From the NCBI GenBank assembly GCA_944472135.2, contig OX235265.1:40707459-40771458 (forward strand): 64,000 nt of DNA, read 5' to 3'. Position 1 is the stretch's first letter. Each line of letters starts with the position of its first letter. Positions 13,798 through 62,436 of this stretch are shown here, in pieces. Source of the stretch: Trichobilharzia regenti (taxonomy: Eukaryota; Platyhelminthes; Trematoda; Strigeidida; Schistosomatidae). The notes beneath the pieces were generated by a model. That model saw nothing but the letters and a program-made list of their open reading frames with translations, had not been told where the DNA came from and searched no databases. Both the position numbers and the translations under genes were made by a program.

Positions 13798-13971
13798 GTT
13801 TCTGACGATGGAAACAGATCTGGCGGATTCAAACAGTTGGTGAAAGTTTGGATAGTCGTCGTTCATTTTTCCTGGTGCCGGTCAAGTCCTCTTTGAACAA
13901 GCAATATCTGGAACTTTTTTGGAATTGGGTCAAGTTCAACAATACCTGGGTCAAAGGAGGGTCAGAGTGTC

Positions 13972-27348: not shown

Positions 27349-27386
27349 TTTCCCTACTTGAGCGTTAAAGTCACCAGCTAGAACGA

Positions 27387-28768: not shown

Positions 28769-28914
28769 ATGAGTCTTGCTAAGAGGAAAAATGCTATTCC
28801 GAATGTAACGGGAAACCACCAGATGAGTTGGAGGGAACTGGCTGAAGCTGATGATCTCGCTTCTGCCCTCACTGTTGATCCTTATCTTGGCTTTACTACC
28901 CATAAAATGACAGA
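28769..28914 (+). CDS. Suv4-20: Suv4-20 exon 1
   Basis: Encodes residues 1-48 and two bases of codon 49. It contains [16 protein letters not shown] and [12 protein letters not shown], matching the conserved N-terminal block of Suv4-20 that helps form the substrate pocket region. The donor is AGA|GTATGC. The ATG at 28769 is chosen because the frame is open upstream only briefly and this ATG precedes the conserved block. Further untranslated exons upstream cannot be excluded. Confidence 0.85.
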
Positions 28915-31900
28915 GTATGCCTTAAATATTACTATATGTTTACTTACAGTATGAGGTTAAAAATTCCAGAAAGAATCAAAAGGAAGTTTTGTGATATCAT
29001 ATCTGCCTTTCGGAAAAATAAGTGTTACGATACAGCTTTCAACCAGCTGACTGCCGATCCAAACATAGTGAAACGGTCTTGGAGTATTGACCCTCGTTTC
29101 AAGGAACATGTATGTTGTGTCAAACCATCACTTATTTACAGATCAATCGATACTTGTTATTATTTGATGATCGTTCTGGCATTGAAATTCGACCTTGTTG
29201 GCGCTACGCATCAGAAAATCATATGGGAGCCGCAATATATGCCACAAAAGATTGGTAAGCTAATGAAATTTAATTGAATTACTTTTCAGGGCGAAAGGGT
29301 CTCGTATTAGTACTTTGGTGGGATGCATCGCTGAACTCAAGCATCATGAAGAGGCTACATTCCTTAAGCAACACAAAAATGACTTTTCAGTCATGTATTC
29401 TTCTAGAAAAAACTGTTCCCAATTATGGTTAGGTCCTGCAGCTTATGTTAATCATGACTGTCGACCTAACTGTGAGGTAAGTGCATTCGCTTTGTAAACT
29501 CACTACCTAGGGTTATGCTTTCATATTTTCCTACTTTGCATGTCTTTTGTGGCTAAGCAGTTCTAATTATAGTGTTCCTATATGATTTTACCAACTCTTA
29601 GAACATATTCTTCGGACTGGATTTCGCTGTATTTATTTTTTTTTCAATTTTCGATGTTGTTTGAGAAGATAAAGAGCAAAAGCTCAAGTATCAACCTATG
29701 ATTGAAATACTCTTAGAGATTTTATACAGTTCGAAAATACTTATAGTTCACTCGTTGGTTTGAAATTGAATCTGCTTAAAGTGAAGAAAAGAGCAAGGTG
29801 GCATTAATGAACGTTCTCTGTTCAACTTCTCATTTCATTCATATATACTTTATGAAGTTTTTCTTACATGGTAGGCTGGATGTATTGCATAGGATACTGG
29901 TAAGTGGTGTTTGGAAAAAACAACAGATTGAGCGGAGAAATATATTCCTTTTCCAATTATTTCCTCATCATCGGCTCCACACTACATATAGTTTTTACAT
30001 CAACATTTTACCAATCAAATGGTTATTTCAGTTAATCAGATTTAGGTATAGGGGGTGGGTGAAATTGAGAGGTTAACAAGAAGTTATTACACAATCAAGA
30101 CATTCGTAAAATGGTGACTAAGAAGGATAGGATGACTCAGAAGAATTACGTAAAATACATACAAGTTAATAGAATTAGCTAAATTTGTAAAAAAAAATAA
30201 CAAAGTCAAAAGATAGTTTCAAGGGGATGGGAGAAAAAATCGTTTTTAAAGACTTTATGCATATTATGTAGTTGGCCATGTTATAGAAAGGAGTTGTACA
30301 AATATATCTTGCACACATAGATTTAGTTTGTTCAGATGAGTTCCGACTACCTCTGTTGTACGTAAAAGTCGATGAGAGGTTGGGTCATATACGATAAATA
30401 ACTTTAAAAGCTTTGTTAGAGTTGGCTTGATGTTCAGTATCGACGAGATGAACTCATATTGAGCTGCGTATACAGCTTTATTCGGACCTTTGCAAAACCA
30501 AGACGGGAAGTGTTTAGAAATTTGACTGTGAACTTGCCTGGTTGGATGTCTGATGTAACTAGCTCCGCACGGATAGTTAAACTGGTAAATACACATGAAA
30601 GAGGCAAGACAGAGCAGTTTGTATTTATTTCGTGAGCTAACTATTGGTTGGTTAGTGAATATGCAGCATAGCTTAGCTACAATGAAAGACATTTTGAAAA
30701 CCCTCCCCAAAAGTTGTGATAAGATCTCACTATTGACATCACCCGTGAATTGTAATCTTAGGAAGACTGATTTTTTGGGAATAGTGGGAACCTTCTGCTT
30801 TTTACTTTCTGAGTTCATGTGTTTGTTCAAAAGTTTAGTCAGACATCTGTTTCTACTTGGTAGCTGACGAATATTACTGAGTTTTTCGTTCACTGTCTCC
30901 TTTGAACAGATAACTGGCCCGGTAAACAAGACATACAACCAGATTACATTTGTATTGTAGAGGTACGAAGCTCAGGAAGTGAGTATATTGTCCAGTGGAA
31001 GTAGGTTTTCTGTGCAATCGTCTACATATTGTTCCGTCTGTTCGTCTAGTCAGTAGAACGACCAAAAAGGAGATAAAGTCATTTTCTTGTTTAGTTAAGC
31101 TTATGTCAGGAAGTGCTCTTTTGAATTTATCCAATACGTCCTTAGTTTTACCTCTTCAATAACTATAAATGTATCATCGACATATTGGCAACACAAATCA
31201 AGATTATGTATTACCATTCTCTAGTTTTGCCAGGAAAAAATCTGCTTGGATTGGGCCTAGCGGTGATACCATGACAACACCATCTGACTGTTTATACATT
31301 TCTTTATTGAACAAGAAGTTTACGTTCATTGTATACCTTAGAAGAAGTTCCTTCAGGAAAAACAGGAATTCCGTTCTATATATGTTACTTTATCAATTCA
31401 GTACCTGTGTAATCAACTGTTTCCATCAGAGGCACTTTGGTGAATAAGGAAGATATATCCAGTGATATCATGCATTTTCCCCTCACACTTAAATCCTTGA
31501 TTCCTTCTACAAACTCAAAACTATATTTTACGCTATTTTTCACAAGTTTCTTATGCAGTGGCTCTAAGAGTTCTACCGGTCATTTCTCGGTTGAATGGTA
31601 TGGTGAAGTAGATATATCGAGAACCGGTCTAAGTGGCAAGCCGTCTTAGCGGAGCTTTGGTAAATCTTATAACCTAGAGTTTATCGTGCCGACAGGTTTT
31701 AGTGTTTCATAGAAAGCAGGTGAAATATGGCCTTGGTGTTTCAACTCCTCTAATGACTCTGTTAACTGTCTCTCAGTCCTCTCTATTGTATCTTTGTTAG
31801 TTGATAGTTTCTGAAATTTATGTACACCACTTAATAAGGTCTCCATTTTGCCGAAGTAATTAGACCTATCTATTTCAACGACTACTGAGCCTTTGTCAAG

Positions 31901-34900: not shown

Positions 34901-37900
34901 GGAGAGAAAACTCTCTCAGCGTAGAACTCTATATGATTTGCAGCAATTATCATACTTCATAAAAGCATACAGGCACTGGTACAAAAGGAGACGCAAATAA
35001 ACTATAATAAATGGGAATGTATAAGAAGAAGAATATTTATATGGAGAAGCATTAGGATTTAGTGGGTCTAAGATCACAAAGAGGAAGTGCATCTGTTCCA
35101 TGTACAACCATTTTTTATTAGCGTCTCAAAGATCTCAACTAGGCAGTCTACACCTCCACATGTAACTCAAACCAACAGTCAATGACTTCATCAGTCGGTT
35201 CCATGCTTTGATTTGACCAATCCAAACTCTTCCAACTTAATCCTATGTCGACTTACACTGCTTGATGAGGAAGCCGATGGCTTGGCGCGCATAACATGTA
35301 TCCTAGCCATCTCAGTTGATGAAGCCTCACAACCTAATCGCTTCGTTTGTTTACCTTACCTAACGCTACACCTAACCTCGGTTAACCCAGACAATACTTC
35401 ATCACTGTCGTCCTTAAGCGCCTTGAGAGTCCTGTCATCAAGTTTTGCTGCTTCGCCAAGTTGGAGGATCGATGTGTACACCCCCTTGCTGATAGATGTT
35501 AGATGCTAGGCAAACTTAGTGTGGCTGTAGGGTAGTTGAAACACCATCCTTCACTTACCACTAATTTTTTACAGCCCTAGTTAGTCAGCTTACGCTTATA
35601 AGTTTTTGTCCTTGTCATAATTTATGCTCACATTTCTATAAGTGGTTTTAACCACAAAATCTCTCAATTATATCATGAGTATTATCAAGTCAAAACATTA
35701 AGTTACTCCCATTGGATGTCTCACTTTTTTCGTCTCTTCAATTTTTTTTAGTTCACAACTAACTGTGATGCTGACGCTCGTATGAGCTTAGAGGCTATAA
35801 CCGATATAAAGTCGGGTGATGAGATTTTCATCTACTATGGGACAAACTTTTTCGATACAAATAATGCAGCTTGCGAGTGTTTTACATGTGAATTATTAGG
35901 TCGTGGATATTTCAGCAAATTTAACCAAAGTGTGGATATGACAAATCCTACTAATGAATTATCATCTCCAACTACTATCTCTGACCAGAGAACTCATCCA
36001 AAAAATATTGTACCAGCATTTCATAATACTCTTAACATTTCTACTGATCATAATCAAATTCTGCGTGATAGAATAAATTCAGTACCAAGTAAGTGAATCA
36101 TTTCTTAATGCAGATTTATTGAAAAGTCTTTTTTATATGCCTATTGAATTTTTATTAAAGTCTACACAATGCAGGGAACAGGTGTGCTGAAATAAATCTC
36201 AATAAATAACCTTAATTTTGTCATTTTTGGACATTCATTTATTAATCTGTTCACACCTTTATTAATCCTTATGTTTATTACCATTCTTAGCATACGAATA
36301 GTGATGCATCTCTTTGCATGGAATCCATAAAGTGAGTGCTAATGTGTCGGTGGTATAGTGGTTAGGACGCTCGCCGAACATGCACATGGTCCGGGGTTCG
36401 GTCCCCGGCCACAGACGCACTCCTTCACCCCGCTGAGCCAAAAATAATGCTGGTAAAGAGGAAAGGTTGGGCATGAGGCTAGCAACCCCATCCTGTAAAA
36501 TTAAACACTGCTGCAGAAAGTCCAAGCCACTAGCTTGAAGCCCTGTGTTCCACTGGGAACGTGAAGAAAAAATGTTACTCCCAAACATTCTGTGTCTTAA
36601 GATAGCACTTCGCACTTTCTCAGTTTTAAGCGATTGATGCGGTGCACTAAACAAACTGACTATTTATAAGACTTTTTCTATCTTCCTTACCACGAGATGT
36701 CTGTTTGAAAATTTTTAGATCGGTCAATTCTTGTGATTCTTTTGACTGGATTATTCAGTTACATCAAAATGTAGTAGACAGTTGAATTGCTTTGATGTTT
36801 GTAGAGAGAATCCTGTTTTTGGTGTTTATGAGTGATAAAATAAATCTACTAAGACATGTTGAAACATTTCACTGTCGTGAAGCTGTTCATATTTACTATG
36901 AATGAGCTCATCCCGGTATAACTTTTCCCCTAAATGGTTTCAGAGTTATTTTGGTGCAGGGTGGAGGGTATATATTTTAGATACCTATAATAAAGTTAAT
37001 AGAAATTGTTCGAGTCCCTACTGTTCTGCAACTTCAAAATATACGGCAAATGTAAACAAGTGATGTCTTAAAATTACAAAGTGAATAAATAAACTTACAA
37101 AATCCATGTGCAATGTGACTTTTGGTTAATGAAGCTGTTAATGATGTTATTTATGTACTGTTTGAGAATGTTCCTCTTTATACTTTACTGGTTTCTGTCA
37201 GTATCATCATCCCCAACCACCCCTTGCACACCACAGTCTGGTACATGAAAAATCTCTCCTGTTTATCAGAGTTAACTAAGGTAATATACAAGCTACAGGT
37301 AGCGAAGTTTATGTTGTCTAGTAAGATTGGATTTGGACAGACTGCATCAACCAATGAAATAACTAGTGGCGTAACAATGGATGAAAAATGAAGAAATTAT
37401 GCCAAAACGTTTTAGTTACTCATGAGTAGTATAACTAGTAACAGTGACTAATTCATAAGGGAATTATTCTACCGATTTTGTGTTCTCTGAGCTGGTTGAT
37501 GAAATTACGAAGCTTTCGATGTCCTCATATTTATTTTTCTCTATCAAAATCTGTTCATTTAGCTCTATGCTGAACCTTTAGTCTCTGCCTTGTCTAACTT
37601 TTCTTTGTTATCTACTTTATTTATACGTACATCGAAGCTGCAGAAACTTCCGTATCACAATGGTTTTTTTTAAGGTTATAACCCTATCGTGTCGCATGAG
37701 GAGTTTAGTTATCAGATTTATTGCGTTTCCCTTCACCTAGTTGTGTTCTTTTACCTGATGCATTATTCAATTAGAATTAAAGAGTAAACGAGTTAGAAGT
37801 AAAGCAATATATCAAGGTCATATGGACTCTCATCACGATTTGAACCAATAGTTCCAAAATAATCGGAAACCGAGTGAAAAGTACACATATCTAAAAATAG

Positions 37901-40900
37901 TTGTAAAATCTCAACGGAATTGAAATGAGTAATTCCAACATTTCGGCCGGCAAACTTGTCCAAACTTCTTCAAGGAAATTAATCGAAATTAAAATAACAG
38001 GTTTATATTTCACAACGACATATCTTTTTTGAAAAAAATTTGTCCAATCATATGAGTTATGAAACAGACATCAAAATATGAAATTGCATGAACTTTTGTA
38101 AAACACTGTAGACGGTGAGTAATTTTTCATCAGATTTCTAGTGATTACGTTCGACTAAAGTCCATGGTCGTAGATAACTGAATATGAAAATATGTGTGCA
38201 TATGAGGTATACGATGGTGTGTGTGCATGTGTGTATAGAGAAACAATTGTCAATCATTTATAAGACTATATATATATCTAGACCAAGTTCACTTTTAACG
38301 GTTTGAAAAAAATTTGGCCTTTGGGTTTATGATATTCATTATAATAACGGTTTTCTTGTATTTCCCAATGAACGAAAAACAAAACGATATTGTTTTTACT
38401 GACGGTTCGCTATTTAATGCTAATAGCTTTATCAAAGTATTATTAAACCGGAATTTACAAAATCTCTGAATATATATAACAAAGAGTTAGGGAGTGAGAA
38501 AATAGACTTAGGTCAAGTTAAAAGCACATATTGAAAGTCAAAATAGCAATGAAGATCACTAAACCAAATAACAAGGGTAATGGTACGTCTGTTATGATAT
38601 CAAAATAAAGTTTACTAACTTGATCATCGTTCGTCGGTCTGAGGTCGTTTTTCGTTGTCAAGTTGGTCAATTGGTAAAGACAACAAAATCAAGTGTAGAT
38701 TGTTGAATTTGATCAGTGTGTAAAGTTATAAAAGCAGTGTGTTTACATAGTGAATTTGCTTATCACATTTGTGTTGATTTTGTCACTTCATAGGGGAGGG
38801 AGGTGTTGTAACCAGGTCAGATTCGGTTTTAGTCCATCATTCCTATTCAGGCAATTTGGATTCCATTTGATATGAAGTGCTTCTGATATTAGACGTTCTT
38901 TGTGATTTCTGAAGTTTTTCTGGATTATTTCAATATTGTTAAAATCAATTTTGTGGCCTGATTCTATAGCATGTAGACCTATGCCTGATGATTTTTCAAG
39001 TTTTCCTAGTTCAACCGGATTTCTCGGTGGTCGAAGAGATGTTCTACGGTGTTCATTTCTTCCGATTTTGATTTCTCCATATGTTTGTCGGATGTATGTC
39101 GTATCACATTCCAAGCATTTTATTTTATAAATACAATTAGATAGAGAGATAGAAATATCAAACATTACTCAAACTCTCAAGCAAAACAACTACCCAAGGA
39201 ACTTCATCAACAAAACCAACACAGACATTAAGTATGGTCGAAAACGCATTACGAAAACATGGACATCAACAGTCGTCATTCCATACAGAGCAGAGACGTC
39301 AAACGATATCAGAAGAGTACTCAATCAGCTCGATATGAGTGTTTTCTTCAAAACATCAGACACACTTCAAAGCAACCTTGTCCACATAAAAGACCAAATC
39401 CCTAAAGATTCTCTATCTAATTGTATTTATAAAATAAAATGCTTGGAATGTGATACGACATACATCCGACAAACATATGGAGAAATCAAAATCAGAAGAA
39501 ATGAACACCGTAGAACATCTCTTCGACCACCGAGAAATCCGGTTGAACTAGGAAAACTTGAAAAATCATCAGGCATAGGTCTACATGCTATAGAATCAGG
39601 CCACAAAATTGATTTTAACAATATTGAAATAATCCAGAAAAACTTCAGAAATCACAAAGAACGTCTAATATCAGAAGCACTTCATATCAAATGGAATCCA
39701 AATTGCCTGAATAGGAATGATGGACTAAAACCGAATCTGACCTGGTTACAACACCTCCCTCCCCTATGAAGTGACAAAATCAACACAAATGTGATAAGCA
39801 AATTCACTATGTAAACACACTGCTTTTATAACTTTACACACTGATCAAATTCAACAATCTACACTTGATTTTGTTGTCTTTACCAATTGACCAACTTGAC
39901 AACGAAAAACGACCTCAGACCGACGAACGATGATCAAGTTAGTAAACTTTATTTTGATATCATAACAGACGTACCATTACCCTTGTTATTTGGTTTAGTG
40001 ATCTTCATTGCTATTTTGACTTTCAATATGTGCTTTTAACTTGACCTAAGTCTATTTTCTCACTCCCTAACTCTTTGTTATATATATTCAGAGATTTTGT
40101 AAATTCCGGTTTAATAATACTTTGATAAAGCTATTAGCATTAAATAGCGAACCGTCAGTAAAAACAATATCGTTTTGTTTTTCGTTCATTGGGAAATACA
40201 AGAAAACCGTTATTATAATGAACATTTATTAGACTCTCCATAAGATTATGTAGACAATCGGGAATTTAGATCGAGTATGATTGATTACTGGTACATATGC
40301 ATTTTTAATAATTAATCGGGACTTGTCACGCATCAGCTATCATCACACCTTCACTTCTATTCAAACTTTTGGGACTCACCCATATATGTAGGGCTACTGC
40401 AGTCAGTCTTTCTTTATTCGAACCAAAACCTTTCTGTAGAACTTTAATCCCATCAAAGTCGATCTTGTGTCTCGTTTCTATCGAGTGCAGTGCAATCGCC
40501 GATCTATTTCCTAGCTTTTTCAAGTCTGCATAGGTCTTTAGAACCACATTTAGACATTGTTTATGTTCCTTCCCTCTTATATTTACCTGTTTGGAAGTTT
40601 CTCCTACATATACAGCGTTACATTCCCCACAATTGATCTAGTGCACATATTTCTGTTGGTTGTCCTGATTTTCATCCCCAATCTTCACCAGTGATGAGCG
40701 TAAGATGTTAGTTGCGCGAAAATACACTCCTCTGTCATGATTGTTAAGGATTGGTTAATTCTCATCCGATGTTTTTTTGCGGTAAGGTATTATCACTGCG
40801 CTAACCCCGATTCTCAGCAACAGGCTTCAATTCATCCATATCTTCACATTTTAAATATCTTCTTATAAAGGTCTTGGCATTATTATTTGATTGAAGAGTG

Positions 40901-43900
40901 TATTGAACCAATTTAAATTGCCTACTGACCTCTTCCTCTCCAGTAACTAGATGTTTGGCCACAGTTACTTTGGTGGTAAACGGATGTGCTGAAAAGTAGT
41001 CTAGGTATCTGTGTGAATTTGTCGGCTTTCTGAAAATGTGTAAGTTGATTATCTGGTTGTCCTTTTATTAATTAGTCCAGGAAAGCCAAATCATTTTTTT
41101 AGGATTCAACCTCTTTGGAAAACTCGATGGTTTCTAAAATATTGTTTATTAAATGAAAAAGTTCATTCAAAGTACTGTGTCTGACTATAACGAAAGTATC
41201 CTCCAAGTATCTTAACCACATTTTTGGAGCACTAGCGCATCGCATAATTGTATTTGTTTCTAATGAGTGCACAAACAGATTGGCGACTGGCGGAGACACT
41301 GGTGATACTATACCAATGCCTTCTGTTTGACGGTAGAGAACCCCTCTAAATGTTAGTAACATGGGGCGTAGACGCAGTTCCAATGCCTTTGTAATTTCAT
41401 CTAGATTTAAAGAACAACGACTACTGAATTCGTTGTCAGAACGAAGCTAACTATAAATAATACTTAAAGAACCTTCAATGGGAACATTTGTGAATAATAA
41501 ATAAACATCGAAACTTGCCATTACTTCGTCTTCTTCAATATAAGTCGTGTTGATTTTTCTCTTAAATTAATATGAATTCTCTACTCCATGTTCCACTTTC
41601 ATTTCATTTGGAGTCAGTATTCGTTAAATGTATTCGGAGAGTTTGTAGGTAGGGAAATCAGTAAAATCCACAACTACCCGTAATGGAACTTCTGGTTTGT
41701 GCATTTTTGGTAATCCATAAAATCTGCAGGGGGCTGGAACATTTTGGAACCAGAGTAAACCCAAGTGATACACCGAGTTTCTCTTTTATGGACTGTAACA
41801 TTTTGCTTGTTTCAGCCTTCAATTTATTCAGTGTCACCCTAGACTTTGTCATATTCACTTTTTCATAGGGTCCGATATTAAGTTGACCAATAGCTTTCTT
41901 TTCATAATATACAGAGTTCATAACAGCCGTGGTATTGCCCTTATCTGCTGTTGTAACGAAAATCGATTTATCTTTCTGCAGTTGTAATACCGCTTGTTCG
42001 TTTTTGTTTATATTCGCGTATTTGACTTCTGATTTAGTAGTATAGCTGTAATTTTGTGTCTTATGACATTCGCCTCTTCAGCTGTCACACACTTTAGTGA
42101 CGGTTCGATCGCTGGAACTATTTCGACGGCCGATAAACGTCTTTTGTTTAAATTAAAATTAAGTCCTTTTTTAAAAAGGGATAGCTCACAACCAGATAAA
42201 TTTCTATCAGAGAGATTAGCCACCACTTTTTTCGTATTTAGAATGTTACGATTAGATTTATTTTCAAATTTTTTTCTGGTGTTTAGGACTACAGTTTAGT
42301 TGAAATATCCTGTCGAACCTTTTGATTTGTCTTCTTTTTGAGTTTTGAAGATAAAAGTTCGGACTAGTTTGCCGAACGAATCTTTGGGATTACTCACTTC
42401 AATTCCGTTGAGATTTTACAAATATAATTTTTACATATGGATTTATGAAAAGCTTTTTTATTTGATTGTGATGAAGGATTTGTCATCTTTTTAACAAGTA
42501 TTTAAAATTTATTGAGATAAAATATTTTCAACCAGTTGTCACAGTATTTGACTTTATTTTGATTGATGTAGTTTAGGTAATGATATATAGTAGTGTTCAT
42601 AAAGTGTGAGACCGGACATACATTTCAATTCAACTTCACTTGAAACCTTTTATGTGATTGTGGAAATCTTAAGGTAGTTGTAAAACGAAGTCGTCAGTAT
42701 TTCATCCTCTTTGTATTATTTTCTGTCTTTGTCTAAAATTTGAATAGATAATTCTCACTTTGTCAAGTGGATTGGTTCTCAAGTCACTAAGTCTATATCA
42801 TTGGATTTCTTCCTGAAGAAGGGATCTTCAACTGGTTTGGCTTGTAAAGCATTGCCTAATGCATATTCCTTACGGCATACCGGCTATCGTTTAAATCGTG
42901 TTAAAGCTCGACTTATTGCTGCAACCATAGCTTCCGTAAACAAATCACGTTATTCGATTAGTCATGAGAACAGGACTCCGAGGATTATTTCCCCTTATAA
43001 AAAGTGCATGTTAAGAAAAACTATTAAGAAAAGCGTTTCATCTTGCCTACAGAATGAATCAAATTTGCATTCATGTGACAGTGAGCGAAGAAAGCTAAGC
43101 AATGCATTATCATCTGTCGTAAAAAGACGAAGACAATTATTACGGAATAGTCATATATCTGAACAACGAAGTTTTACTCCCAAGAGTACTGTTAAAGTCC
43201 CTGTTTCCAATGACACAACAGTTTGTGACAGAATAGCATGGCAAGAATCAGATGGAACTAGCAGTGGATTAGGATACAGTGTTCATAATGATTGCAGTAG
43301 TGCTTCAAATAGCCCATTACCACCTTTATTGGATCGTATGCCATCAACTTCACCAAATAATTCCTTCAGTGATTCAACTGTTACACCTGCTCTTGGATCA
43401 CCCTATTATTGTGATTCAGTAACTCAAATGTCCAGTAATGATAATGATGACAATATGGATAATGATAGTAATGCAAATAATGATGATAACGACGCAGGTA
43501 CTACTGTTACACCTGATCTTGGATCACCGTATTATACCGATTCAGTAAGCCAAATGTACAGTGATGATGACGATATGGATAGCAATAGTAATGATATTAA
43601 TGATGATGATAATAATATTTATAATAATGCCAATGACGATAATATTAACAAAAGATGTACAACTGTTACACCTCATCTTGTATCACCCTATTGTATTGAT
43701 CCAATAATCCAAATGTGCAGCAACGATAATGATGATGATGATGATGCTGATATGGATAATAACAATAATAATAACAGCAATGATAGTAGCGGAAATAATG
43801 ACGATAGTCGCAGTGATACTGATGATGAAAGTGATACTACTGTTACTCCTGCTCTTGGATCACCCTATTATTGTGATTCAGTAACTCAAATGTGCAGTAT

Positions 43901-46900
43901 CGATAATGATGACGATATTGATGATAGCAATAATAATAACAATAATACTAACAATGATCCTAATAAGATGAAAAGAGATACGACCATTACACCTGATCTT
44001 GGATTACCCTATTATATTGATCCAGTAATCCAAATGTATAGTAATTATAATGATGGAGATATGGATAATTATAGTAATGCTAACAATTCTAATGACAATA
44101 ATGAAAATAATAACGAAAGAAATACAACCGTTACACTGGATCTTGTATCACCCTATTATATTGATCCAGTAATCCAAATATACAGTAATCGTAATGACGA
44201 TGACATGGATAATTATAGCAATGATAATAATAATTATAATGATAGTGACCATAGTAATAATAATAATAACAAAATAGATACGGCTATTCCACCTGTTCGT
44301 GTATCACCCCGTTATATTAATCCAGTAACCCAAATGCACACTCATGAGGAGGATGATGATGACGGTGATGGTGACGGTGACGAGGATAACAGCGATAACA
44401 GTACTAGTAGTGATAGTGATTATAATGACAGTGATAATAACAAAACTGAAACGTCTGTTACACCTGATCTTGGATCACCCTATTATATTGATTCAGTAAC
44501 ACAAATGTGTGGTATTGATAATGATGATGATGATGATGACGATATTGATGATAATAATAATAATATTAATAATAATAAAGACTGTAACGATGAACATAGC
44601 AAGAGGGACATGTCAGTTACACCTTATCTCGGATCAGTCTATTGTACTAATTCAGTAATCCAAATGAACAGTAATCATAACGATGACAACAACGGTAATA
44701 ATAATAACAGTAATGAAACTGTTACGACTGTTACACATGATCTTCGATCGCCCTATTGCATTCACTCAGTAACCCAAATGTGCAATTCTGGTAACAACGA
44801 TATGGATAATAATAGGAAAGACAATGGTAATTGTAATGATAACAGAAGAGATCCAACTGTTACAGTGGTGCATAGATCACCATATTATATTGATTCAGTA
44901 ACTCAAATGTGCAGTATTGATACTAGTGACGATAGTGAAAATAGTAATAATAATAATAGTGGTAATGGTAATAATGGCAGCAAGGGAACTGTTACCCCCA
45001 ATCTCGAAGCAGCTTACTATATTCATCCAATAACTCAAATGTACACAAATGATAACGATGATGATATTGATAATAAGAATCATAATAATATTGATAATGA
45101 CGACAATAATGTTAATGAGCATAATAAGAAAACTGTTACGCCTGATCTTGGATCGTCCGATTGTATTCATCTACTGACTCAAATGTGTAGTATTGACATT
45201 AATGACGATAATAATGATAATGATGCCGATATTGACAATAACAGCAATGAGAACAGTAAGAAAAGTGTTACGCCTGATCGTGGATCGGCTCACTCTATTC
45301 ATCCAGTAACGCGAATGTACACAAGTGATGATAATGACAGCGATATTGCTATCAATAATAATACTAGTCCAATTAGTAGTCACAATGATGACAGTAATGT
45401 TATTAAAAACAGTAAGGAAACTGTTACATCTGATCTCGGATCACCCAATTATATTCATCCAGTAACACAAATGTTCTGTAATGATAATGATAGCAATATT
45501 GGCAATGACAACAGTAAGAAAACTGTTACATTAGATCATGGATCTCCGGGTTTTACTTCTCCGTTAACTGAAATGTACAGTAATAATAATAGCAACAATA
45601 ATGTTGATGAGCATAATAAGAAAACTGTTACGCCTGATCTTGGATCGTCCGATTGTATTCATCTATTAACCCAAATGTGCAGTATTGATATTAATGACGT
45701 TAATGATGCCAATATTGACAATAACAGCAATAGGAACAGTAAGAAAAGTGTTACGCCTGATCGTGGATCGACTCACTCTGTTCACCCAGTAACCCAAACG
45801 TACAAAAACGATAATGATGACGATAGTGACAATAATGGCAATGACAACAGTAAGAAAACTGTGACACCCCGCCATGGATCACCGGATCGTATTCCTCCAC
45901 TAACTGAAATGTTCAGTATTGATGATAGTGGTGACGAAATCGACAATAATTACAATGACAGCAGTAAGGAAAATGTGACACCCCACCACGGATCACCGGA
46001 TCGTATTCCTCCACTAACTGAAATGTTCAGTATTGATGACGATGCTGATAACAGTGTTAATGATAACAGTAAGAAGACTGTTACGCCTGATCCTGGATCA
46101 TCTTATTATATTCATCCAGTAACCCAAATGTGCAATTCCGATCATGATGATATGAATAATTATAATAATGATAATAACAGCTGTAATGACAACAATCGTA
46201 GTGATAAGGATAACAAAAGCGAAGTTACCGTTACACTGGGACATAGATCACCATTTTGTATTGATCCAGTAACCCGGATATTCAGTAATGATATTGGTGA
46301 CAATAATAGCTATGATAACAGTAAGAAAACTGTTACACCCGATCTTGGATCACCTTATCGCATGAATCGAACAGCCCAAATGTCCTGCATTTATAATGAC
46401 GACAACAACAACAATAATAATGATATTATTAACAACAGAGGCACGACTGTTACACCTGAGCATAAATCCCCCTGTAACATTAATTCAGTTACTCAAAAGT
46501 GTATTGATAATATTGACGATGATATGGATAACAATACTAATGATAAGAAAATTTGTATTTATAAAGATCTTAATGCTGATAATGACAAAAATGCTAACAA
46601 TAATTCTAATGATATTAGTATTAAGAAAGATGATAATGATATTTATAATGATAATAACTTTATTCATGAAAACAATGGCAATTGTAATAATGACAAAAAT
46701 GATAATATATGCGACAATGATAGTGAAATCAGTATGAACAACAACGCTGTATTATTGTCAAGATCATCTGAAATGTGTAACCAACTTTCTACTGACAAGT
46801 TAATGAGTTCAATTGTTACTCTATCGCAAGCCAAAGGTACGTTCAATATACTTTTTAGTTTTTATAATGTTCTTTTTCGGCCTTCCGTTTAAATGTGTCG

Positions 46901-58900: not shown

Positions 58901-61900
58901 AGGGAAGCCTTCCACCTAGGTTTCGTGCCAGGCCAGTTGGCGCTCTTCAGCAAATCCTATCTGCAACCTTGAAAGAACTCATGTTCCTTCTGAGATTCGA
59001 ACTCGCGTCACCCAGTGCTGCAGTCAGAGACGTTACCACTGAGCTATTCGGGCTCTTGATTGCCTTGCTGTAGGACTGTAGTGGATACTTTGATTGGACA
59101 CTAGTAACTAGTGTGGTGTGTCTAGTCCTTTCTTTGGTGTAGACTGAATTCTATCAGTCAGGTTTGCATTGTGGCCAACATTCTAGGTAGCTCCCCATCA
59201 CGGTGCACATTTATTTTATTCTGGATTGCTGGAATAGTCTTTTTAATAAAACGACTTTGAAAAAATCTAAACATCAATTAAGTTTTTTTTTTTTAATAAG
59301 TCGTGCGTCGGTTGCACAGCGGTTAGGACTCTCGTCGACCATCCACATGGTCCGGGGTTCAATCCCCTGCCGACGCACACCCGATATCAATGGTCGGCCT
59401 GCAAAATTTTGGCTACCGATATCACATGTTGAAAATTCCATACTTGTACAAAATTATACTGTGTGGAATCAAGTTATAATAAAAAAAATCTTCAGGTGTT
59501 CTATTTATTACTTTCTGCGGTTATCAATTTTCTTCGATAACTTAACTGTATTTGATGAAATAATTTCAGATGTGTAAATTCATTATACTTATGTATGATG
59601 TATCTTTAGATATAGCTTATTGGTTCGATGCACTCAGAATCCGTTGTTTTACATACTTTCTCATATTAGATTACACTGGTGTACATTATTATTAGCCATT
59701 CGTCAAGATACCATGAAATTGCTCCCTTTATGATTAGGATTGTGATCTATATGTGTACTTAAAAGGCTTTTTGTTTTTTCTACTTCATGATCTTCTCATT
59801 TGAGTCTAGTTATTTTTTTAAGAGAAAATTAGTCATATATTGCGAAGTGGTCGCGTTATGTCATGAATGGGCAGAAGTTAGAATTCATGAGTCATTGGGT
59901 CAGGTCGCAGTGGCCTTAAGGGTCTACGAGCTTGCCTTGTAACCAGAAGGTCATGCGTTCAAACCTCGGTGGGTGCGTACTGTTTGTAACATGTCACGTT
60001 ATTCATTGATTAGTAAGTTACACCTCTGTTTGACTACTCATAATATTCATAAGTATGGCCTTATTTCGTGTCAGTATGGTCTAATAGCTATGCCCTTAGA
60101 ATGTCACCCAAAATCTCCTGATGTGAAAAATCTTTGTACTCAATTTGTTGGGGGTGTTGGTTTCTTAGCTGTTCAAAAATATCATTGCTACAAATTTTTG
60201 GTCTCTCTAATTCTAGTTGGTTTTTATTTCTTTATTTTCAGGGGAGATTAAGTCACGAAAAGGTGTTGAACCAATATTGGGACGACTTATGCATGAATCT
60301 CAGTGTGATATTAAGAAGTCATTGGTGAACAATCACCTACTACCAAGTCAATCCTCTACTCTACGTGGTAAACGGCGTATCACGAACTATGATGCTCGTT
60401 TAATAGCTGAAGCTAAACTGCTTGCTCCAATGTCGAGGCGACGCGAACGTAAACCTTTGTATAATCCAGATTATCTTGAGTTTATTTCACTAAAGGATGT
60501 AGTCATACCTCCGAAGTTAACTTCACCCAAATCAAATTGTAAAAGAAAGAATGTAAATAAGCCATCCCAATTCAGTATTGATCATAAGGACGATTGTACA
60601 AGTTTAGATCTTAAGGATGCTAATAATATTTGCTGTCCAAAGTCAACACTCTCTAGTTCTACTGAAAACCATTGTACGGAGGTGGAATCTACTTCTAATG
60701 ATCTAGCGCCACCATTGCTACTTAGTGAACATCCTTCTGAGCTCACTGTACCTGATACAGTCGCTGAACCAGTACTCAAATGCGATCCTGATAGTGTTGT
60801 GGCTCCAGAACCTGTCGCTGATGCCAAAACAGCTCCTGAGAAGTGCCAGCCAAGACCGCATTATTATTTCCGTAAAACAAAATGTAATTATCTCCTTCGA
60901 AGAGTTGTGCACATAGCTTCACCCCCACTATTACAAGCAGTTCCTTCTCCCACTGTACCTGATACAGTTGCTGAACCAGTACTCAAATGCGATCCTGATA
61001 GTGTTGTGGCTCCAGATCCTGTCGCTGATGCCAAAACAGCTCCTGAGAAGTGCCAGCCGAGACCGCATTATTATTTCCGTAAAACAAAATGTAACTATCG
61101 CCTCCGAAGAGTTGTGCACATAGCTTCACCCCCACTATTACAAGCAGTTCCTTCTCCCACTGTACCTGATACAGTTGCTGAACCAGTACTCAAATGCGAT
61201 CGTGATAGTGTTGTGGCTCCAGAACCTGTCGCTGATGCCAAAACAGCTCCTGAGAAGTGCCAGCCGAGACCGCATTATTATTTCCGTAAAACAAAATGTA
61301 ACTATCGCCTCCGAAGAGTTGTGCACATAGCTTCACCCCCACTATTACAAGCAGTTCCTTCTCCCACTGTACCTGATACAGTTGCTGAACCAGTACTCAA
61401 ATGCGATCCTGATAGTGTTGTGGCTCCAGATCCTGTCGCTGATGCCAAAACAGCTCCTGAGAAGTGCCAGCCGAGACCGCATTATTATTTCCGTAAAACA
61501 AAATGTAACTATCGCCTCCGAAGAGTTGTGCACATAGCTTCACCCCCACTATTACAAGCAGTTCCTTCTCCCACTGTACCTGATACAGTTGCTGAACCAG
61601 TACTCAAATGCGATCCTGATAGTGTTGTGGCTCCAGATCCTGTCGCTGATGCCAAAACAGCTCCTGAGAAGTGCCAGCCGAGACCGCATTATTATTTCCG
61701 TAAAACAAAATGTAACTATCGCCTCCGAAGAGTTGTGCACATAGCTTCACCCCCACTATTACAAGCAGTTCCTTCTCCCACTGTACCTGATACAGTTGCT
61801 GAACCAGTACTCAAATGCGATCCTGATAGTGTTGTGGCTCCAGATCCTGTCGCTGATGCCAAAACAGCTCCTGAGAAGTGCCAGCCGAGACCGCATTATT

Positions 61901-62436
61901 ATTTCCGTAAAACAAAATGTAACTATCGCCTCCGAAGAGTTGTGCACATAGCTTCACCCCCACTATTACAAGCAGTTCCTTCTCCCACTGTACCTGATAC
62001 AGTTGCTGAACCAGTACTCAAATGCGATCCTGATAGTGTTGTGGCTCCAGAACCTGTCGCTGATGCCAAAACAGCTCCTGAGAAGTGCCAGCCGAGACCG
62101 CATTATTTTTTTCGTAAAACAAAATGTAATTATCTCCTTCGAAGAGTTGTGCATATACCCACACCTCCACTATTACAATCAGTAACTCCTTTTGACTTGT
62201 ATACACGATATTCCCCAGGTAAAAGTAAAAACGATTACTTATCAAATACAGCTCGTAAGGCATCGATAATTTCTTGTGCCCATAATCCCAGACGGTCGCG
62301 AAACTCAGATGTCAATGGTGTAATCTCGCATGCTACTGTTTCAAATGCAGGTACACATCGTCTTACCGTCACACTCAAAAGGATTGGACCTAAACTTTAT
62401 CAGATATCTCAACCGAAAAGAATATTTATTACTTAA
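28769..62436 (+). CDS. Suv4-20: Suv4-20-type histone H4 lysine-20 methyltransferase, seven exons
   Basis: Joined exons: 28769-28914, 28950-29109, 29142-29254, 29290-29476, 35752-36088, 42748-46836, 60242-62436. They sum to 7,227 bases, or 2,408 residues and a stop. All six introns are GT-AG and all junction phases match. The SET region spans roughly residues 100-250, with GCIAEL, NHDC (194-197), YYG (230-232) and post-SET CxCxxC (243-248). The family converts monomethylated H4K20 to di- and trimethyl forms in chromatin, using S-adenosylmethionine. Residues 354-368 ([15 protein letters not shown]), 1722-1731 ([10 protein letters not shown]) and 2383-2398 resemble motifs downstream of SET in animal Suv4-20, as I remember them. 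Between them lie two large repeat arrays (about 525-1580 and 1847-2329). The human paralogues are under 900 residues, so this protein is unusually long. Confidence 0.88.
28915..28949 (+). other. 35-bp intron 1
   Basis: GT at 28915 and AG at 28948-28949 (TTTACTTACAG). Removing it joins GA to T and keeps the conserved reading THKM-TD-MRLKIP. Its tiny size is typical of 5' introns in schistosome genes. Confidence 0.85.
28950..29109 (+). CDS. Suv4-20: Suv4-20 exon 2
   Basis: Residues 49-102. It reads [19 protein letters not shown], then FNQLTADP and FKEH at the end. This is the helical N-terminal domain preceding SET in Suv4-20. The donor is CAT|GTATGT, phase 0. Confidence 0.88.
29110..29141 (+). 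other. 32-bp intron 2
   Basis: GTATGT...TATTTACAG, phase 0. Removing it joins FKEH to INRYLLLF, in line with the family. Confidence 0.85.
29142..29254 (+). CDS. Suv4-20: Suv4-20 exon 3
   Basis: Residues 103-139 and two bases of codon 140. It reads [35 protein letters not shown]. This is the start of the SET fold in Suv4-20 (family pattern: ...GFEI..C.RYS.E..GA.I.ATK.W). The correct frame is not the longest open one in this segment, and splice phase decides it. The donor is TG|GTAAGC. Confidence 0.88.
29255..29289 (+). other. 35-bp intron 3
   Basis: GTAAGC...ACTTTTCAG. It joins TG to G to complete the Trp codon at residue 140. Confidence 0.85.
29290..29476 (+). CDS. Suv4-20: Suv4-20 exon 4 (SET core)
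   Basis: Residues 140-202. It reads [37 protein letters not shown], then NHDCRPNCE. The NHDC motif (194-197) is the SET NHxC signature that contributes to S-adenosylmethionine binding, and [20 protein letters not shown] is highly characteristic of Suv4-20. The donor is GAG|GTAAGT, phase 0. Confidence 0.93.
30264..30938 (-). pseudogene. Penelope-like linker and GIY-YIG endonuclease remnant
   Basis: 224 codons. The linker has [12 protein letters not shown] and the nuclease region has [20 protein letters not shown], where the expected YIG has become YIR. The reading frame is long but contains no catalytic reverse transcriptase part. It is likely inactive. Confidence 0.65.
30874..31912 (-). pseudogene. 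Penelope-like reverse transcriptase remnants
   Basis: A minus frame at 31912-31667 gives [18 protein letters not shown], then [12 protein letters not shown] and [12 protein letters not shown], the N-terminal part of a Penelope reverse transcriptase. Frame 31134-30874 ([20 protein letters not shown], then [16 protein letters not shown]) is the thumb. The catalytic part between them is spread over several broken frames. Confidence 0.6.
32395..32575. repeat. Dispersed 130-bp block also present at 37740-37890
   Basis: AATAGTTCCAAAATGATTGG and then GCCGAGTGAGAAGTG recur with changes at 37848-37885. Both copies sit at the edge of a Penelope-like element, so this may be part of their terminal repeats or an older shared target. 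Confidence 0.5.
32990..34310 (+). mobile_element. Old RTE-like LINE relic (plus)
   Basis: Pieces in several frames read QTGFR then [33 protein letters not shown] and [12 protein letters not shown] (near 33705). These line up with the reverse transcriptase of the RTE copy at 25684-27348 ([36 protein letters not shown]). Stops and indels are frequent, so it is an old copy. Ends are approximate. Confidence 0.6.
34310..35150. other. Unassigned intron sequence
   Basis: Nothing recognisable; AT-rich with scattered short frames. Confidence 0.3.
35150..35510 (-). mobile_element. RTE-like 3' fragment (minus)
   Basis: The plus-strand text GAAGCCGATGGCTTGGCGCG and CATCTCAGTTGATGAAGCCTC is a diverged match to 25105-25170 of RTE copy 1. 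It represents the C-terminal coding (the WLGHVLRMPS region) of a minus-strand RTE. It is short and decayed. Confidence 0.55.
35752..36088 (+). CDS. Suv4-20: Suv4-20 exon 5 (end of SET, post-SET)
   Basis: Residues 203-314 and one base of codon 315. It starts [16 protein letters not shown], then [16 protein letters not shown] and [17 protein letters not shown] and the CxCxxC zinc-binding cysteines (243-248) match the family's SET C-flank. The remainder is a Ser/Thr/Asn-rich linker. The donor is CCAA|GTAAGT. Continuing past it would give a stop after three codons, which supports the splice. Confidence 0.92.
36344..36575 (+). mobile_element. tRNA-derived SINE, copy 1
   Basis: The head resembles a tRNA: GGTATAGTGGTTAGGACGC (A box) and GGGGTTCGGTCCCC (B box and T arm). 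A body follows with AATGCTGGTAAAGAGGAAAG and TTGAAGCCCTGTGTTCCACT, ending in an A-rich tail. It has the same structure as the copy at 47118-47345. It is not a functional tRNA: there is no normal anticodon arm. Confidence 0.8.
36576..37740. other. Unassigned intron sequence
   Basis: No coding or recognisable repeat. An 89-codon frame at 37122-37391 matches nothing I recognise. Confidence 0.3.
38788..39147 (-). pseudogene. Penelope-like GIY-YIG C-terminal coding, left palindrome arm
   Basis: Reads [20 protein letters not shown], then [29 protein letters not shown] and [15 protein letters not shown], ending at 38788. IYKIKC and TYIRQT correspond to the two strands of a GIY-YIG nuclease, with Arg where Gly is expected in YIG. 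It is 5'-truncated by the spacer, so it is a fragment. Confidence 0.75.
39180..39769 (+). pseudogene. Penelope-like linker and GIY-YIG coding, right palindrome arm
   Basis: From about 39180 the frames read [11 protein letters not shown], the conserved linker, then from 39335 [20 protein letters not shown] followed by [15 protein letters not shown] and [19 protein letters not shown] to a stop at 39769. The last 120 codons match the left arm. It has the same YIR in place of YIG. No reverse transcriptase precedes it, so it is 5'-truncated. Confidence 0.75.
40326..42226 (-). pseudogene. Penelope-like polyprotein remnants
   Basis: Minus-strand blocks in order: 42226-42008 (N-terminal domain), 41921-41658 ([15 protein letters not shown] and [15 protein letters not shown]), 41383-41099 (reverse transcriptase motif B as [20 protein letters not shown], motif C as [12 protein letters not shown]), and 40547-40326 ([11 protein letters not shown] terminus). 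Motif C reads YLEDT instead of YVDDT, so a catalytic Asp has been replaced by Glu and the copy is dead. It belongs to the same broad family as the palindrome arms but is clearly diverged. Confidence 0.7.
42748..46836 (+). CDS. Suv4-20: Suv4-20 exon 6 with the Asn/Asp-rich repeat array
   Basis: Residues 315-1677 and one base of codon 1678. AT completes the Asn codon begun in exon 5. Early residues (354-368) read [15 protein letters not shown], resembling the RLNR block after SET in other Suv4-20 proteins. Next comes a Lys/Arg/Ser-rich segment, then about 24 repeats (residues 525-1580) of a core like [18 protein letters not shown] followed by 15-40 residues of almost pure Asn/Asp. The donor AAAG|GTACGT at 46837 is preferred over reading on to the stop at 46892, because its phase matches exon 7 and the extra residues are unrelated. 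The exon has no stop in 4 kb, which argues for selection on the frame. Confidence 0.82.
43377..46550 (+). repeat. About 24 degenerate Asn/Asp-rich coding repeats
   Basis: Unit length varies from about 34 to 59 codons. The conserved core is [TS]VTPxxGSPxYIxPVTQM and the linker is Asn/Asp-rich, built mostly of AAT, AAC, GAT and GAC codons. Units 12-14 and 16-18 form a higher-order duplication sharing [20 protein letters not shown], and units 19 and 20 are a near-identical tandem pair. Most units are diverged, so the array is old with some later local duplications. Confidence 0.88.
47118..47345 (+). mobile_element. tRNA-derived SINE, copy 2, with target-site duplication
   Basis: The same family as the copy at 36344. 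It is bounded by the 12-bp direct repeat AAACATTCCTAA (47106-47117 and 47346-47357). The head has GGTATAGCGGTTAGGACGC and GGGGTTCGATCCC, and the tail ends in an A run. The duplication shows it was inserted by LINE machinery. Confidence 0.88.
47358..47790. other. Unassigned intron sequence
   Basis: AT-rich; no feature seen. Confidence 0.3.
47966..48320 (-). pseudogene. RTE-like C-terminal fragment, copy 2
   Basis: Two overlapping minus frames (48320-48117 and 48253-47966) give [20 protein letters not shown] and then [13 protein letters not shown] and [11 protein letters not shown]. It matches the C terminus of copy 1, with a frameshift between the pieces. Confidence 0.7.
48856..49258 (-). pseudogene. 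RTE-like reverse transcriptase motif A and B fragment, copy 2
   Basis: Minus-strand frames give [35 protein letters not shown] (motif A, with the Ala of AFDS changed to Pro) and then [17 protein letters not shown] (motif B). It breaks off at 49258, where the nested RTE tail is inserted. Confidence 0.7.
49269..49502 (-). mobile_element. 5'-truncated RTE insertion nested in RTE copy 2
   Basis: 234 bp almost identical to the 3' end of RTE copy 1 (24692-24925). It starts at the TCTGTCTGTC tail and ends in coding for the last residues of the LINE. It is flanked by a 10-bp target-site duplication, CACCTGGTGT (49259-49268 and 49503-49512). Its similarity to copy 1 suggests a recent insertion from that family. 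Confidence 0.92.
49764..50348 (-). pseudogene. RTE-like reverse transcriptase N-terminal fragment, copy 2
   Basis: 194 codons reading [54 protein letters not shown] and [18 protein letters not shown]. This is the region between endonuclease and reverse transcriptase fingers. The GPDG finger motif that should follow is lost. Confidence 0.75.
50709..51125 (-). pseudogene. RTE-like endonuclease fragment, copy 2
   Basis: 138 codons running from [20 protein letters not shown] to [19 protein letters not shown]. It keeps in one frame the junction that is frameshifted in copy 1 ([18 protein letters not shown]), and so confirms where copy 1 is broken. The N-terminal endonuclease strands upstream are in other frames. 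Confidence 0.75.
51283..51293 (+). repeat. Run of 11 G
   Basis: An uninterrupted G tract inside the RTE copy 2 leader. It is notable only as an assembly or sequencing risk point. Confidence 0.8.
51700..53590. other. Unassigned intron sequence with a less AT-rich block
   Basis: 51700-52470 shows nothing recognisable. 52530-52930 is less AT-rich (GCCACCTCAAACAGGCCAAG, CTCTGGCCCCTGAGGTGAGT) and could be a repeat I do not know. 52930-53590 shows no feature, apart from the possible start of the RTE relic that follows. Confidence 0.35.
53800..53955 (+). pseudogene. RTE relic endonuclease fragment
   Basis: Frame 53722-53955 includes [18 protein letters not shown] and [13 protein letters not shown], corresponding to APTD...EFYQKL and [13 protein letters not shown] in RTE copy 1. 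The AGDFN motif has become AGDIN. Confidence 0.65.
55675..55990 (+). pseudogene. RTE relic C-terminal fragment
   Basis: Frames 55675-55857 and 55854-56180 give [20 protein letters not shown], then [20 protein letters not shown] and [14 protein letters not shown]. They match VLGKQGKSID...LQRLRWLGHV and [17 protein letters not shown] of RTE copy 1. Confidence 0.65.
56530..56745 (-). mobile_element. tRNA-derived SINE, copy 3
   Basis: A reverse-orientation copy of the SINE at 36344 and 47118. The head is at the right (GGTGGCGCAGCGGTTGGGGC on the minus strand) and the body and tail are at the left (CACGTTCCCAGCGGAACATA on the plus strand), next to an ATT run at 56501-56518. Confidence 0.82.
56746..57556. 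other. Unassigned intron sequence
   Basis: AT-rich; nothing recognised. Confidence 0.3.
57557..58602 (-). mobile_element. Short Penelope-like remnant between 229-bp inverted repeats
   Basis: 57557-57785 and 58373-58602 are reverse complements, nearly identical (for example TTTCAAGCACAATTTATTGC against its complement). The 590-bp interior contains, on the minus strand near 58025-57965, [18 protein letters not shown], the start of a GIY-YIG domain as in the other copies. So this is a heavily 5'-truncated Penelope-like element bounded by inverted pseudo-LTRs. Confidence 0.75.
58790..59060 (-). mobile_element. SINE with tRNA-like head and RTE-like tail
   Basis: On the minus strand the head (59060-58990) has AATAGCTCAGTGGTAACGTC (A box) and GAGTTCGAATCTC (B box). 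At the far end, plus-strand 58805-58865 (ACGTAGAACTTGGCGACG, GTGCAGCAGTTCGAGTTGCC) aligns with the RTE tails at 24700-24755 and 47810-47855. A SINE borrowing an RTE 3' end could use the RTE reverse transcriptase. Confidence 0.75.
59305..59378 (+). mobile_element. tRNA-like SINE head
   Basis: GCGTCGG and CCGACGC form a perfect 7-bp acceptor-like pair around GCGGTTAGGACTC (A box) and CCGGGGTTCAATCCCC (B box and T arm). The middle is GACCATCCACATGGTC, a hairpin rather than a normal anticodon arm, so I call it a SINE head related to 36344 and 47118, not a tRNA gene. The tail after it differs from those copies. Confidence 0.7.
59380..59845. other. Unassigned intron sequence
   Basis: AT-rich; no feature seen. 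Confidence 0.3.
59850..59985 (+). mobile_element. Relic of the hammerhead-type SINE, head only
   Basis: GCAGAAGTTAGAATTCATGA and then CCTTGTAACCAGAAGGTCAT and GCGTTCAAACCTCGGTGGG correspond in order to the SINE copy at 62695-62930. The B-box-like GTTCAAACC is good, but the hammerhead core that should follow is missing. Confidence 0.6.
60242..62436 (+). CDS. Suv4-20: Suv4-20 exon 7 with seven 69-residue repeats, C terminus
   Basis: Residues 1678-2408. GG completes the Gly codon from exon 6, giving [15 protein letters not shown]. Residues 1722-1731 ([10 protein letters not shown]) and SRRRERK resemble a motif in the C-terminal part of animal Suv4-20, and [16 protein letters not shown] near the end resembles the family's LKIQLKR-type segment. 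Between them, residues 1847-2329 are seven repeats of 69 residues, each with [29 protein letters not shown] and RRVVHI. The stop is TAA at 62434. The antisense frames that recur every 207 bp are by-products of the repeat. Confidence 0.85.
60748..62196 (+). repeat. Seven tandem 207-bp coding repeats
   Basis: Units start at 60748, 60955, 61162, 61369, 61576, 61783 and 61990. Inner units are almost identical at the DNA level, differing mainly in GAT/GAA (APDP or APEP) and one CCT/CGT. The first and last units share TATCTCCTTCG where inner units have TATCGCCTCCG, and the last unit diverges further at its end. The 207-bp length keeps the frame. Confidence 0.96.

What the first reader, a model, noticed from the sequence alone, without database searches (positions are those of the whole stretch)
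28769..62436. A Suv4-20 methyltransferase enlarged to about 2,400 residues by two unrelated repeat arrays
The SET core and three short downstream motifs of Suv4-20 are kept, but a Asn/Asp-rich array of about 1,050 residues and a 483-residue array of 69-mers are inserted between them. Family members I know are far shorter. If the arrays are translated, this enzyme would be a large multivalent chromatin scaffold as well as a catalyst. Seen directly: matching phases, open frames through 4.1 and 2.2 kb, and motif order. The role of the arrays is inference.
Basis: partly seen in the sequence, partly recalled or inferred. Interest (0 to 1): 0.88.

Follow-up and report, generated by a model that had tools for sequence, protein, structure and literature searches.

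The report
Repeat-swollen Suv4-20 enzyme of bird flukes
Two bird blood flukes of the genus Trichobilharzia carry a Suv4-20 gene that is predicted to make a histone methyltransferase of about 2,400 residues, more than twice the length of its fluke relatives, because two stretches of its tail, apparently native ones, stand in head-to-tail rows of 24 and of 7 or 8 copies; the rows likely work as a long multi-contact tether to chromatin, which is untested.

Summary
Seven exons with GT-AG borders (28769-62436) join in frame to 2,408 codons: a Suv4-20/KMT5 SET core, 24 Asn/Asp-rich units (residues 525-1565), then seven 69-residue units (1849-2331). The window matches a Trichobilharzia regenti protein at 100%; T. 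szidati has the same layout at 2,484 residues. Orthologues found in other flukes have 928-1,034 residues (one partial record aside).

Two corrections. First, the arrays do not look foreign: six schistosomatid orthologues hold the array-1 motif once and a diverged array-2 segment once (array-2 seed weak). Array 1 is stable: 24 units in both species, 20 of 24 matching by position. Array 2 homogenises within species. Second, great length is not unique: 18 of the other 51 hits, in flies, mosquitoes and fishes, have at least 2,000 residues; those tested lack comparable arrays.

Function is inferred. Array pieces model with very low confidence, as disorder would; 24 of 24 array-1 units keep a TP or SP site, though only 3 keep the strict seed core. 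I favour a multivalent chromatin tether; neutral growth is an equal rival. No Trichobilharzia transcript was found.

The parts
28769..28914 (+). exon 1 (ATG; start of the Suv4-20 N-terminal region)
   Evidence: splice model; matching residues in T. szidati P0001 and T. regenti P0054
28950..29109 (+). exon 2
   Evidence: 35-nt intron before it
29142..29254 (+). exon 3 (start of SET domain)
   Evidence: Pfam SET residues 131-232
29290..29476 (+). exon 4 (SET domain, [25 protein letters not shown])
35752..36088 (+). exon 5 (end of SET, post-SET CECFTC)
42748..46836 (+). exon 6 (tail with array 1)
   Evidence: 1,362 open codons, maximum 125 in 300 Markov sequences
42864..42905 (+). motif [14 protein letters not shown], conserved after the SET domain of Suv4-20
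   Evidence: 15 of 15 fluke proteins (both Trichobilharzia included), recognisable at 1.1-4.2 bits in the arthropods and fishes listed
43377..46499 (+). array 1: 24 units, 18-residue motif (consensus [18 protein letters not shown]) plus Asn/Asp-rich linker, residues 525-1565
60242..62436 (+). exon 7 (array 2 and C-terminus; stop 62434-62436)
   Evidence: orthologues run through the homologous junction
60370..60405 (+). motif [12 protein letters not shown]
   Evidence: 15 of 15 fluke proteins
60754..62202 (+). array 2: seven 69-residue units (207 nt each), residues 1849-2331
   Evidence: TRF 60744-62183, period 207
62359..62409 (+). C-terminal [17 protein letters not shown], predicted beta hairpin
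   Evidence: 15 of 15 fluke proteins; AlphaFold pLDDT means 77 and 82 in the two blocks here

Best explanation
This is the Suv4-20 (KMT5) gene of the bird fluke Trichobilharzia regenti, predicted to make an H4K20 methyltransferase whose tail likely grew by head-to-tail copying of two of its own segments and likely serves as a long, multi-contact tether to chromatin. Shown by sequence: one gene model with both arrays in frame; array 1 of 24 copies of a motif that most other flukes found here have once; array 2 of 7 (T. regenti) or 8 (T. szidati) copies of a segment that schistosomatid orthologues have once in diverged form; both arrays in two Trichobilharzia species and in none of the orthologues found in other fluke genera. 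Inferred: copying by slippage or unequal exchange on the Trichobilharzia stem. Inferred and untested: array 1 acts as a repeated, proline-directed phosphorylation and docking site on an acidic chain, array 2 adds basic patches that touch nucleosomes, DNA or RNA, and together they raise the enzyme's local retention, as separated short motifs in the disordered tail of vertebrate KMT5C do.
For: Gene and core. Species and sister species. Orthologues of 928-1,034 aa in Heterobilharzia, Schistosoma, Paragonimus, Calicophoron and Opisthorchis. The unit profile (built from the T. regenti units) finds 24 units in T. szidati and exactly one in each of six schistosomatid orthologues (one of them, P0058, unnamed), 10.2-19.5 bits. 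TPD[L/V]xxSYY stands once in 12 of the 14 fluke orthologues outside Trichobilharzia. The array-2 profile finds one copy in H. americana (14.9 bits), S. mekongi (13.8) and weaker single matches in four more (1.3-9.0). Positional orthology: 20 of 24 units best match the same-numbered unit of T. szidati, mean 16.0 of 18 identical against 9.6 for other numbers. Constraint: motif residues 384 of 431 identical between species against 486 of 582 in linkers, Fisher p 0.014; pN/pS among units 0.76, bootstrap 0.65-0.90. S/T-P sites: 35 in array 1 against a shuffle mean of 10.4, 0 of 1,000 shuffles as high; 24 of 24 units have TP or SP at the two motif places, 23 of 24 in T. szidati. Net charge of array 1 is -136 in both species. 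Low model confidence, as disorder would give. The tree puts H. americana next to Trichobilharzia at 90/92, moderate support. Vertebrate precedent: PMC11723951 (abstract, passages and section 12).
Against: No Trichobilharzia transcript or peptide was found; a 223-residue query around the exon 6-7 join gave no hit. The Trichobilharzia proteins appear to be gene predictions. The units have drifted: TPD[L/V]xx[S/P]YY is intact in only 3 of 24 T. regenti units and 4 of 24 T. szidati units, and pN/pS shows only weak constraint. Two of 14 fluke orthologues (P0065, P0068) have lost the SYY part of the seed. An older T. regenti model (P0056) puts extra residues at the exon 6-7 join, part of which reads from the end of intron 6, and a shorter record (P0054) has 3 units. 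The window protein has no PxVxL HP1 motif, and a degenerate version is not enriched (array 1: 6 against 3.8, 212 of 1,000 shuffles as high; array 2: 0 against 6.0), so the tested mechanism for a vertebrate KMT5C tail does not transfer directly. The single-sequence model of array 1 draws strands over motifs, at low confidence. The partner of either repeat is unknown. The array-2 seed in S. bovis (1.3 bits) is below a chance match in a mosquito (2.8), and no non-schistosome fluke scores above 0.
Confidence: 0.65

Rival explanations
1. The arrays are translated but have no job: a disordered tail under weak constraint grew by slippage and unequal exchange and the enzyme tolerates it.
For: Linkers are Asn/Asp-rich (55% N+D of 609 residues) and vary in length; pN/pS of 0.76 among units is weak constraint; the strict seed core survives in only 3 of 24 and 4 of 24 units; array 2 turns over fast, identity 94.3% and 92.6% within species against 83.5% between; the family has long tails elsewhere.
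Against: Same unit number (24) and same net charge (-136) of array 1 in both species; motifs better kept than linkers (p 0.014); TP or SP kept in 24 of 24 and 23 of 24 units.
Confidence: 0.5
2. The mature enzyme lacks most of the arrays: exon 6 ends early or is skipped, and the long model is only one isoform.
For: T. regenti records P0054 (612 aa, 3 units) and P0056 (different exon 6-7 join) differ from the long model; no transcript support.
Against: T. szidati is predicted with the same long layout; orthologues encode residues homologous to the end of exon 6 and start of exon 7 contiguously; P0058 has 999 aa on a 3,247-nt contig, which leaves no room for long introns and looks like a transcript (my reading); the frame stays open over 24 units of varying length. 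P0054 joins unit 1 to the linker of unit 15, as a collapsed assembly would (read).
Confidence: 0.12
3. The repeats are arrays of HP1 chromoshadow-domain binding motifs, a direct multiplication of the vertebrate KMT5C mechanism.
For: Human SUV420H2 residues 347-435 bind HP1 and hold a PYVRV pentamer (PMC2701926, passages); longer reptile and frog KMT5C may have extra motifs (PMC11723951, section 12).
Against: No PxVxL in the window protein; a degenerate motif in only 4 of 24 array-1 motifs and none in array 2.
Confidence: 0.07
4. Assembly artefact that chained repeats.
For: T. regenti records disagree on unit number.
Against: A second species has 24 units in matching order and 8 units of array 2 with its own fixed differences.
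Confidence: 0.02

Closest known systems
Suv4-20 / KMT5B-KMT5C histone H4K20 methyltransferases
   Same: SET core, N-terminal MSxxELxExDDLAxxLxxDPYLGFxTHKM stretch, NHDCRPNC, post-SET CxCxxC (alignment), and the YxLRxTxxRLNR motif
   Different: Tail holds two large tandem arrays; no PxVxL
Suv4-20 of Schistosoma and Heterobilharzia (S. mansoni Smp_062530 is listed as 613 aa in PMC4159997, passages)
   Same: Orthologous along the length; one copy of the array-1 motif and, diverged, of the array-2 segment
   Different: 928-1,030 aa in the schistosomatid records found here, no arrays
Very long KMT5C of fishes and Suv4-20 of mosquitoes (up to 2,574 and 2,286 aa)
   Same: Similar total length
   Different: Repeat-covered residues 0-361 in 20 non-fluke proteins tested (19 of them of 1,964 aa or more) against 1,628 here; array-free fluke orthologues gave 0-140 as background
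KMT5C heterochromatin retention domain (PMC11723951)
   Same: Disordered tail carrying short motifs that act together
   Different: There few, HP1-binding motifs; here many copies of other motifs with unknown partner

Membership tests
Suv4-20 / KMT5B-C | SET domain closest to KMT5B/C among solved structures | tested here: met
   top ten hits KMT5B/C (E 1.5e-68 to 9.5e-58), next KMT2D at 6.2e-08
Suv4-20 / KMT5B-C | N-terminal DDLAxxLxxDPYLGFxTHKM region before SET | tested here: met
   alignment, query 18-47
Suv4-20 / KMT5B-C | post-SET cysteines CECxTCExxGxG and NHDCRPNC | tested here: met
   alignment
Suv4-20 / KMT5B-C | YxLRxTxxRLNRxK motif after the core | tested here: met
Suv4-20 / KMT5B-C | di/tri-methylation of H4K20 | not testable with these tools
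   needs an enzyme assay
KMT5C-type HP1-retained tail | hydrophobic HP1 chromoshadow-binding motif (PxVxL-like) | tested here: not met
   0 PxVxL; degenerate form not above shuffles
KMT5C-type HP1-retained tail | disordered tail after SET | tested here: inconclusive
   226-aa array-1 piece mean pLDDT 41.4 (single sequence), 216-aa end piece 45.5 (six-row alignment); low confidence suits disorder but does not prove it

The most novel reading that the evidence does not exclude
In the Trichobilharzia lineage a histone methyltransferase was turned into a chromatin scaffold by serial copying of two of its own docking segments: 24 acidic, proline-directed phospho-motifs act as a graded cell-cycle or kinase switch, and a separately homogenising basic array tracks fast-changing species-specific repeats, making the enzyme's hold on heterochromatin tunable by copy number.
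Probability: 0.18. Interest if true: 0.75.

Novelty: new variant of a known kind. Interest (0 to 1): 0.5.

Why it matters
It is a natural experiment: orthologous enzymes with 1 or 24 copies of a tail motif that 12 of 14 other fluke orthologues keep once. It points to two tail segments (around TPDLxxSYY and around PPxLxP) as candidates for function in fluke Suv4-20, and lets one ask whether motif number sets chromatin retention. The two arrays also evolve in contrasting ways inside one protein: one stable by position, one homogenised within species.

Tried and rejected
Own-genome search: the genome search was asked six times with the same request and never answered, so gene copy number and other array genes in the genome are untested.

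Junction transcripts: a 223-residue query around the exon 6-7 join gave 206 candidates and no hit at E <= 0.001.

Pfam on exons 6 and 7: weak matches only (WW, E 0.011; DUF2782, E 0.04; Lnb_N, E 3.2e-05, just above its cut-off for the whole protein but with no separate stretch). I take all three as composition or repeat effects; not tested further.

Self-BLAST for repeats (second half) gave 0 for every protein, the window included, so it failed its own control and was dropped; a script with one locally shuffled control per protein replaced it (25 of the 70 proteins then held).

HP1-motif reading: not supported.

Literature: searches listed no paper whose title or abstract concerns these arrays or Trichobilharzia KMT5; only this open library was searched. 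Passages of PMC4159997, PMC2701926 and PMC5983875 were seen (the last not used), and abstract, passages and section 12 of PMC11723951. A vertebrate KMT5B counterpart of [12 protein letters not shown] is recalled and comes from no call.

Full report
What is there. The 28769-62436 stretch holds one gene model on the + strand. Seven exons with GT-AG borders join in phase to 2,408 codons and one stop. Rfam hits in the window (mir-3492 and a type I hammerhead) suit a schistosome-like fluke (recalled), and the protein search names it: P0002, UniRef, Trichobilharzia regenti, 100% identical over 91% of the query region; P0001, T. szidati, 94% over all of it. P0002 lacks exon 1 and starts inside intron 1 of my model; P0001 and P0054 have exon 1.

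The enzyme part. Residues 18-257 align with human KMT5B (7yrd_K, E 1.5e-68), including the N-terminal DDLAxxLxxDPYLGFxTHKM stretch, NHDCRPNC and the post-SET cysteines; the next family, KMT2D, is at 6.2e-08. Pfam SET scores 49.1 bits. So membership in Suv4-20/KMT5B-C is secure by sequence; activity is not testable here.

The arrays look like real coding sequence. Exon 6 is open for 1,362 codons against at most 125 in 300 first-order Markov sequences. In array 1 the coding frame has no stop while the other five frames have 30 to 323, although unit spacing varies from 34 to 59 residues. T. szidati shows the same arrangement.

Where the arrays come from. The first search, which admitted candidates of about 1,324-4,214 residues, returned 53 proteins; the only named flukes among them are the two Trichobilharzia. 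A profile of the 24 T. regenti motifs, run on 70 proteins, finds 24 in T. szidati and exactly one in each of six schistosomatid orthologues (H. americana 19.5 bits; P0057-P0061 10.2-11.7 bits; P0058 is unnamed but falls within Schistosoma in the tree); five fish proteins give single matches of 1.4-2.2 bits that I take as chance. Non-schistosome flukes score below 0 with that profile, but all 14 orthologues have TPD at this kind of place and 12 of 14 have the strict TPD[L/V]xxSYY once; the two that do not are P0065 and P0068. The second array's profile finds single diverged copies in schistosomatids (14.9 down to 1.3 bits; the lowest, S. bovis, is below a chance match of 2.8 bits in a mosquito) and none above 0 bits in other flukes. 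So native origin is well supported for array 1 and moderately for array 2. In the tree of 12 array-free proteins H. americana joins Trichobilharzia at 90/92, which is moderate, with long outgroup branches; on that tree the growth maps to the Trichobilharzia stem.

Two modes of evolution in one tail. Array 1 has 24 units in both species and 20 of 24 best match the same-numbered unit. The four that do not (1, 13, 14, 20) are closer to another T. szidati unit, and a stretch covering units 13-14 of T. regenti is 87% identical over 245 nt to one covering units 17-18, which suggests local exchange. Array 2 has 7 and 8 units, 94.3% and 92.6% identical within species and 83.5% between, with five columns fixed differently in the two species: concerted evolution.

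Signs of constraint, for and against. Motif residues are kept better than linkers between the species (89.1% against 83.5%, p 0.014). pN/pS among units is 0.76 (0.65-0.90), a weak signal on paralogous copies. S/T-P dipeptides number 35 in array 1 against 10.4 in shuffles; 24 of 24 units have TP or SP at the two motif places, 23 of 24 in T. szidati, and the net charge of array 1 is -136 in both. Because the units are copies of one seed, enrichment over shuffles is partly expected. Against a strict docking motif, the full core TPD[L/V]xx[S/P]YY survives in only 3 of 24 and 4 of 24 units.

How it may work. Both modelled array pieces have very low confidence (mean pLDDT 41.4 and 45.5), in keeping with disorder; the single-sequence model of array 1 draws strands over motifs, too weak to trust. 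The C-terminal [12 protein letters not shown], kept in 15 of 15 fluke proteins, is predicted as a hairpin. In vertebrates the KMT5C tail is disordered and holds sparse HP1-binding motifs that act by avidity and effective concentration (PMC11723951, abstract, passages, section 12). The Trichobilharzia tail looks like an extreme of that design with other motifs: an acidic chain of repeated proline-directed sites, then units with an acidic part (-3 to -4) and a basic part (+5 to +7). HP1 binding is not supported by motif. I commit to a multivalent tether, perhaps tuned by phosphorylation, at about 0.3; that the arrays exist, are in frame and are native amplifications I hold at about 0.9.

Size in context. 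Of the 51 hits outside Trichobilharzia, 18 have 2,000 residues or more (recounted). In the 20 non-fluke proteins tested for internal repeats, 0-361 residues are repeat-covered, against 1,628 here and 1,617 in T. szidati; array-free fluke orthologues gave 0, 120 and 140. The mode of growth is unusual; the length is not.

Doubts. There is no transcript evidence from Trichobilharzia, the genome search did not complete, and other T. regenti records disagree on unit number and on the exon 6-7 join.

Noticed in passing
window 38332-40225: A perfect 816-nt inverted repeat (arms 38332-39147 and 39410-40225, 100% complementary, 262 nt apart) in intron 5; its ORFs look to me like a Penelope-like element (recalled likeness; Pfam gave no hit for 39131-39769).
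   Followed up: partly
window 25433-25510: The Rfam mir-3492 match (53.4 bits, + strand) lies opposite a reverse-transcriptase ORF (24872-25732, minus strand, Pfam RVT_1), so this microRNA family may be a retrotransposon fragment.
   Followed up: partly
window 62841-62886: Type I hammerhead ribozyme match (37.2 bits) about 400 nt past the stop codon of the gene, probably from a short interspersed element.
   Followed up: no
window 1-28567 and 49764-51215: Many retrotransposon-like ORFs: RVT_1 at 17665-18324, 20782-21357, 24872-25732 and 25684-27417 and DUF1759 at 13897-14871; those at 49764-51215 resemble the 25684-28184 ones by eye only.
   Followed up: partly
window 60075-60153: Another T. 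regenti model (P0056) reads this end of intron 6 as coding (matched by eye); possible alternative exon, not in the T. szidati model.
   Followed up: no
P0060 (S. mekongi): A stretch of about 53 residues (NKFITVAEAQYSTT...) stands twice in its tail: a small independent case of tail copying, or an annotation error.
   Followed up: no
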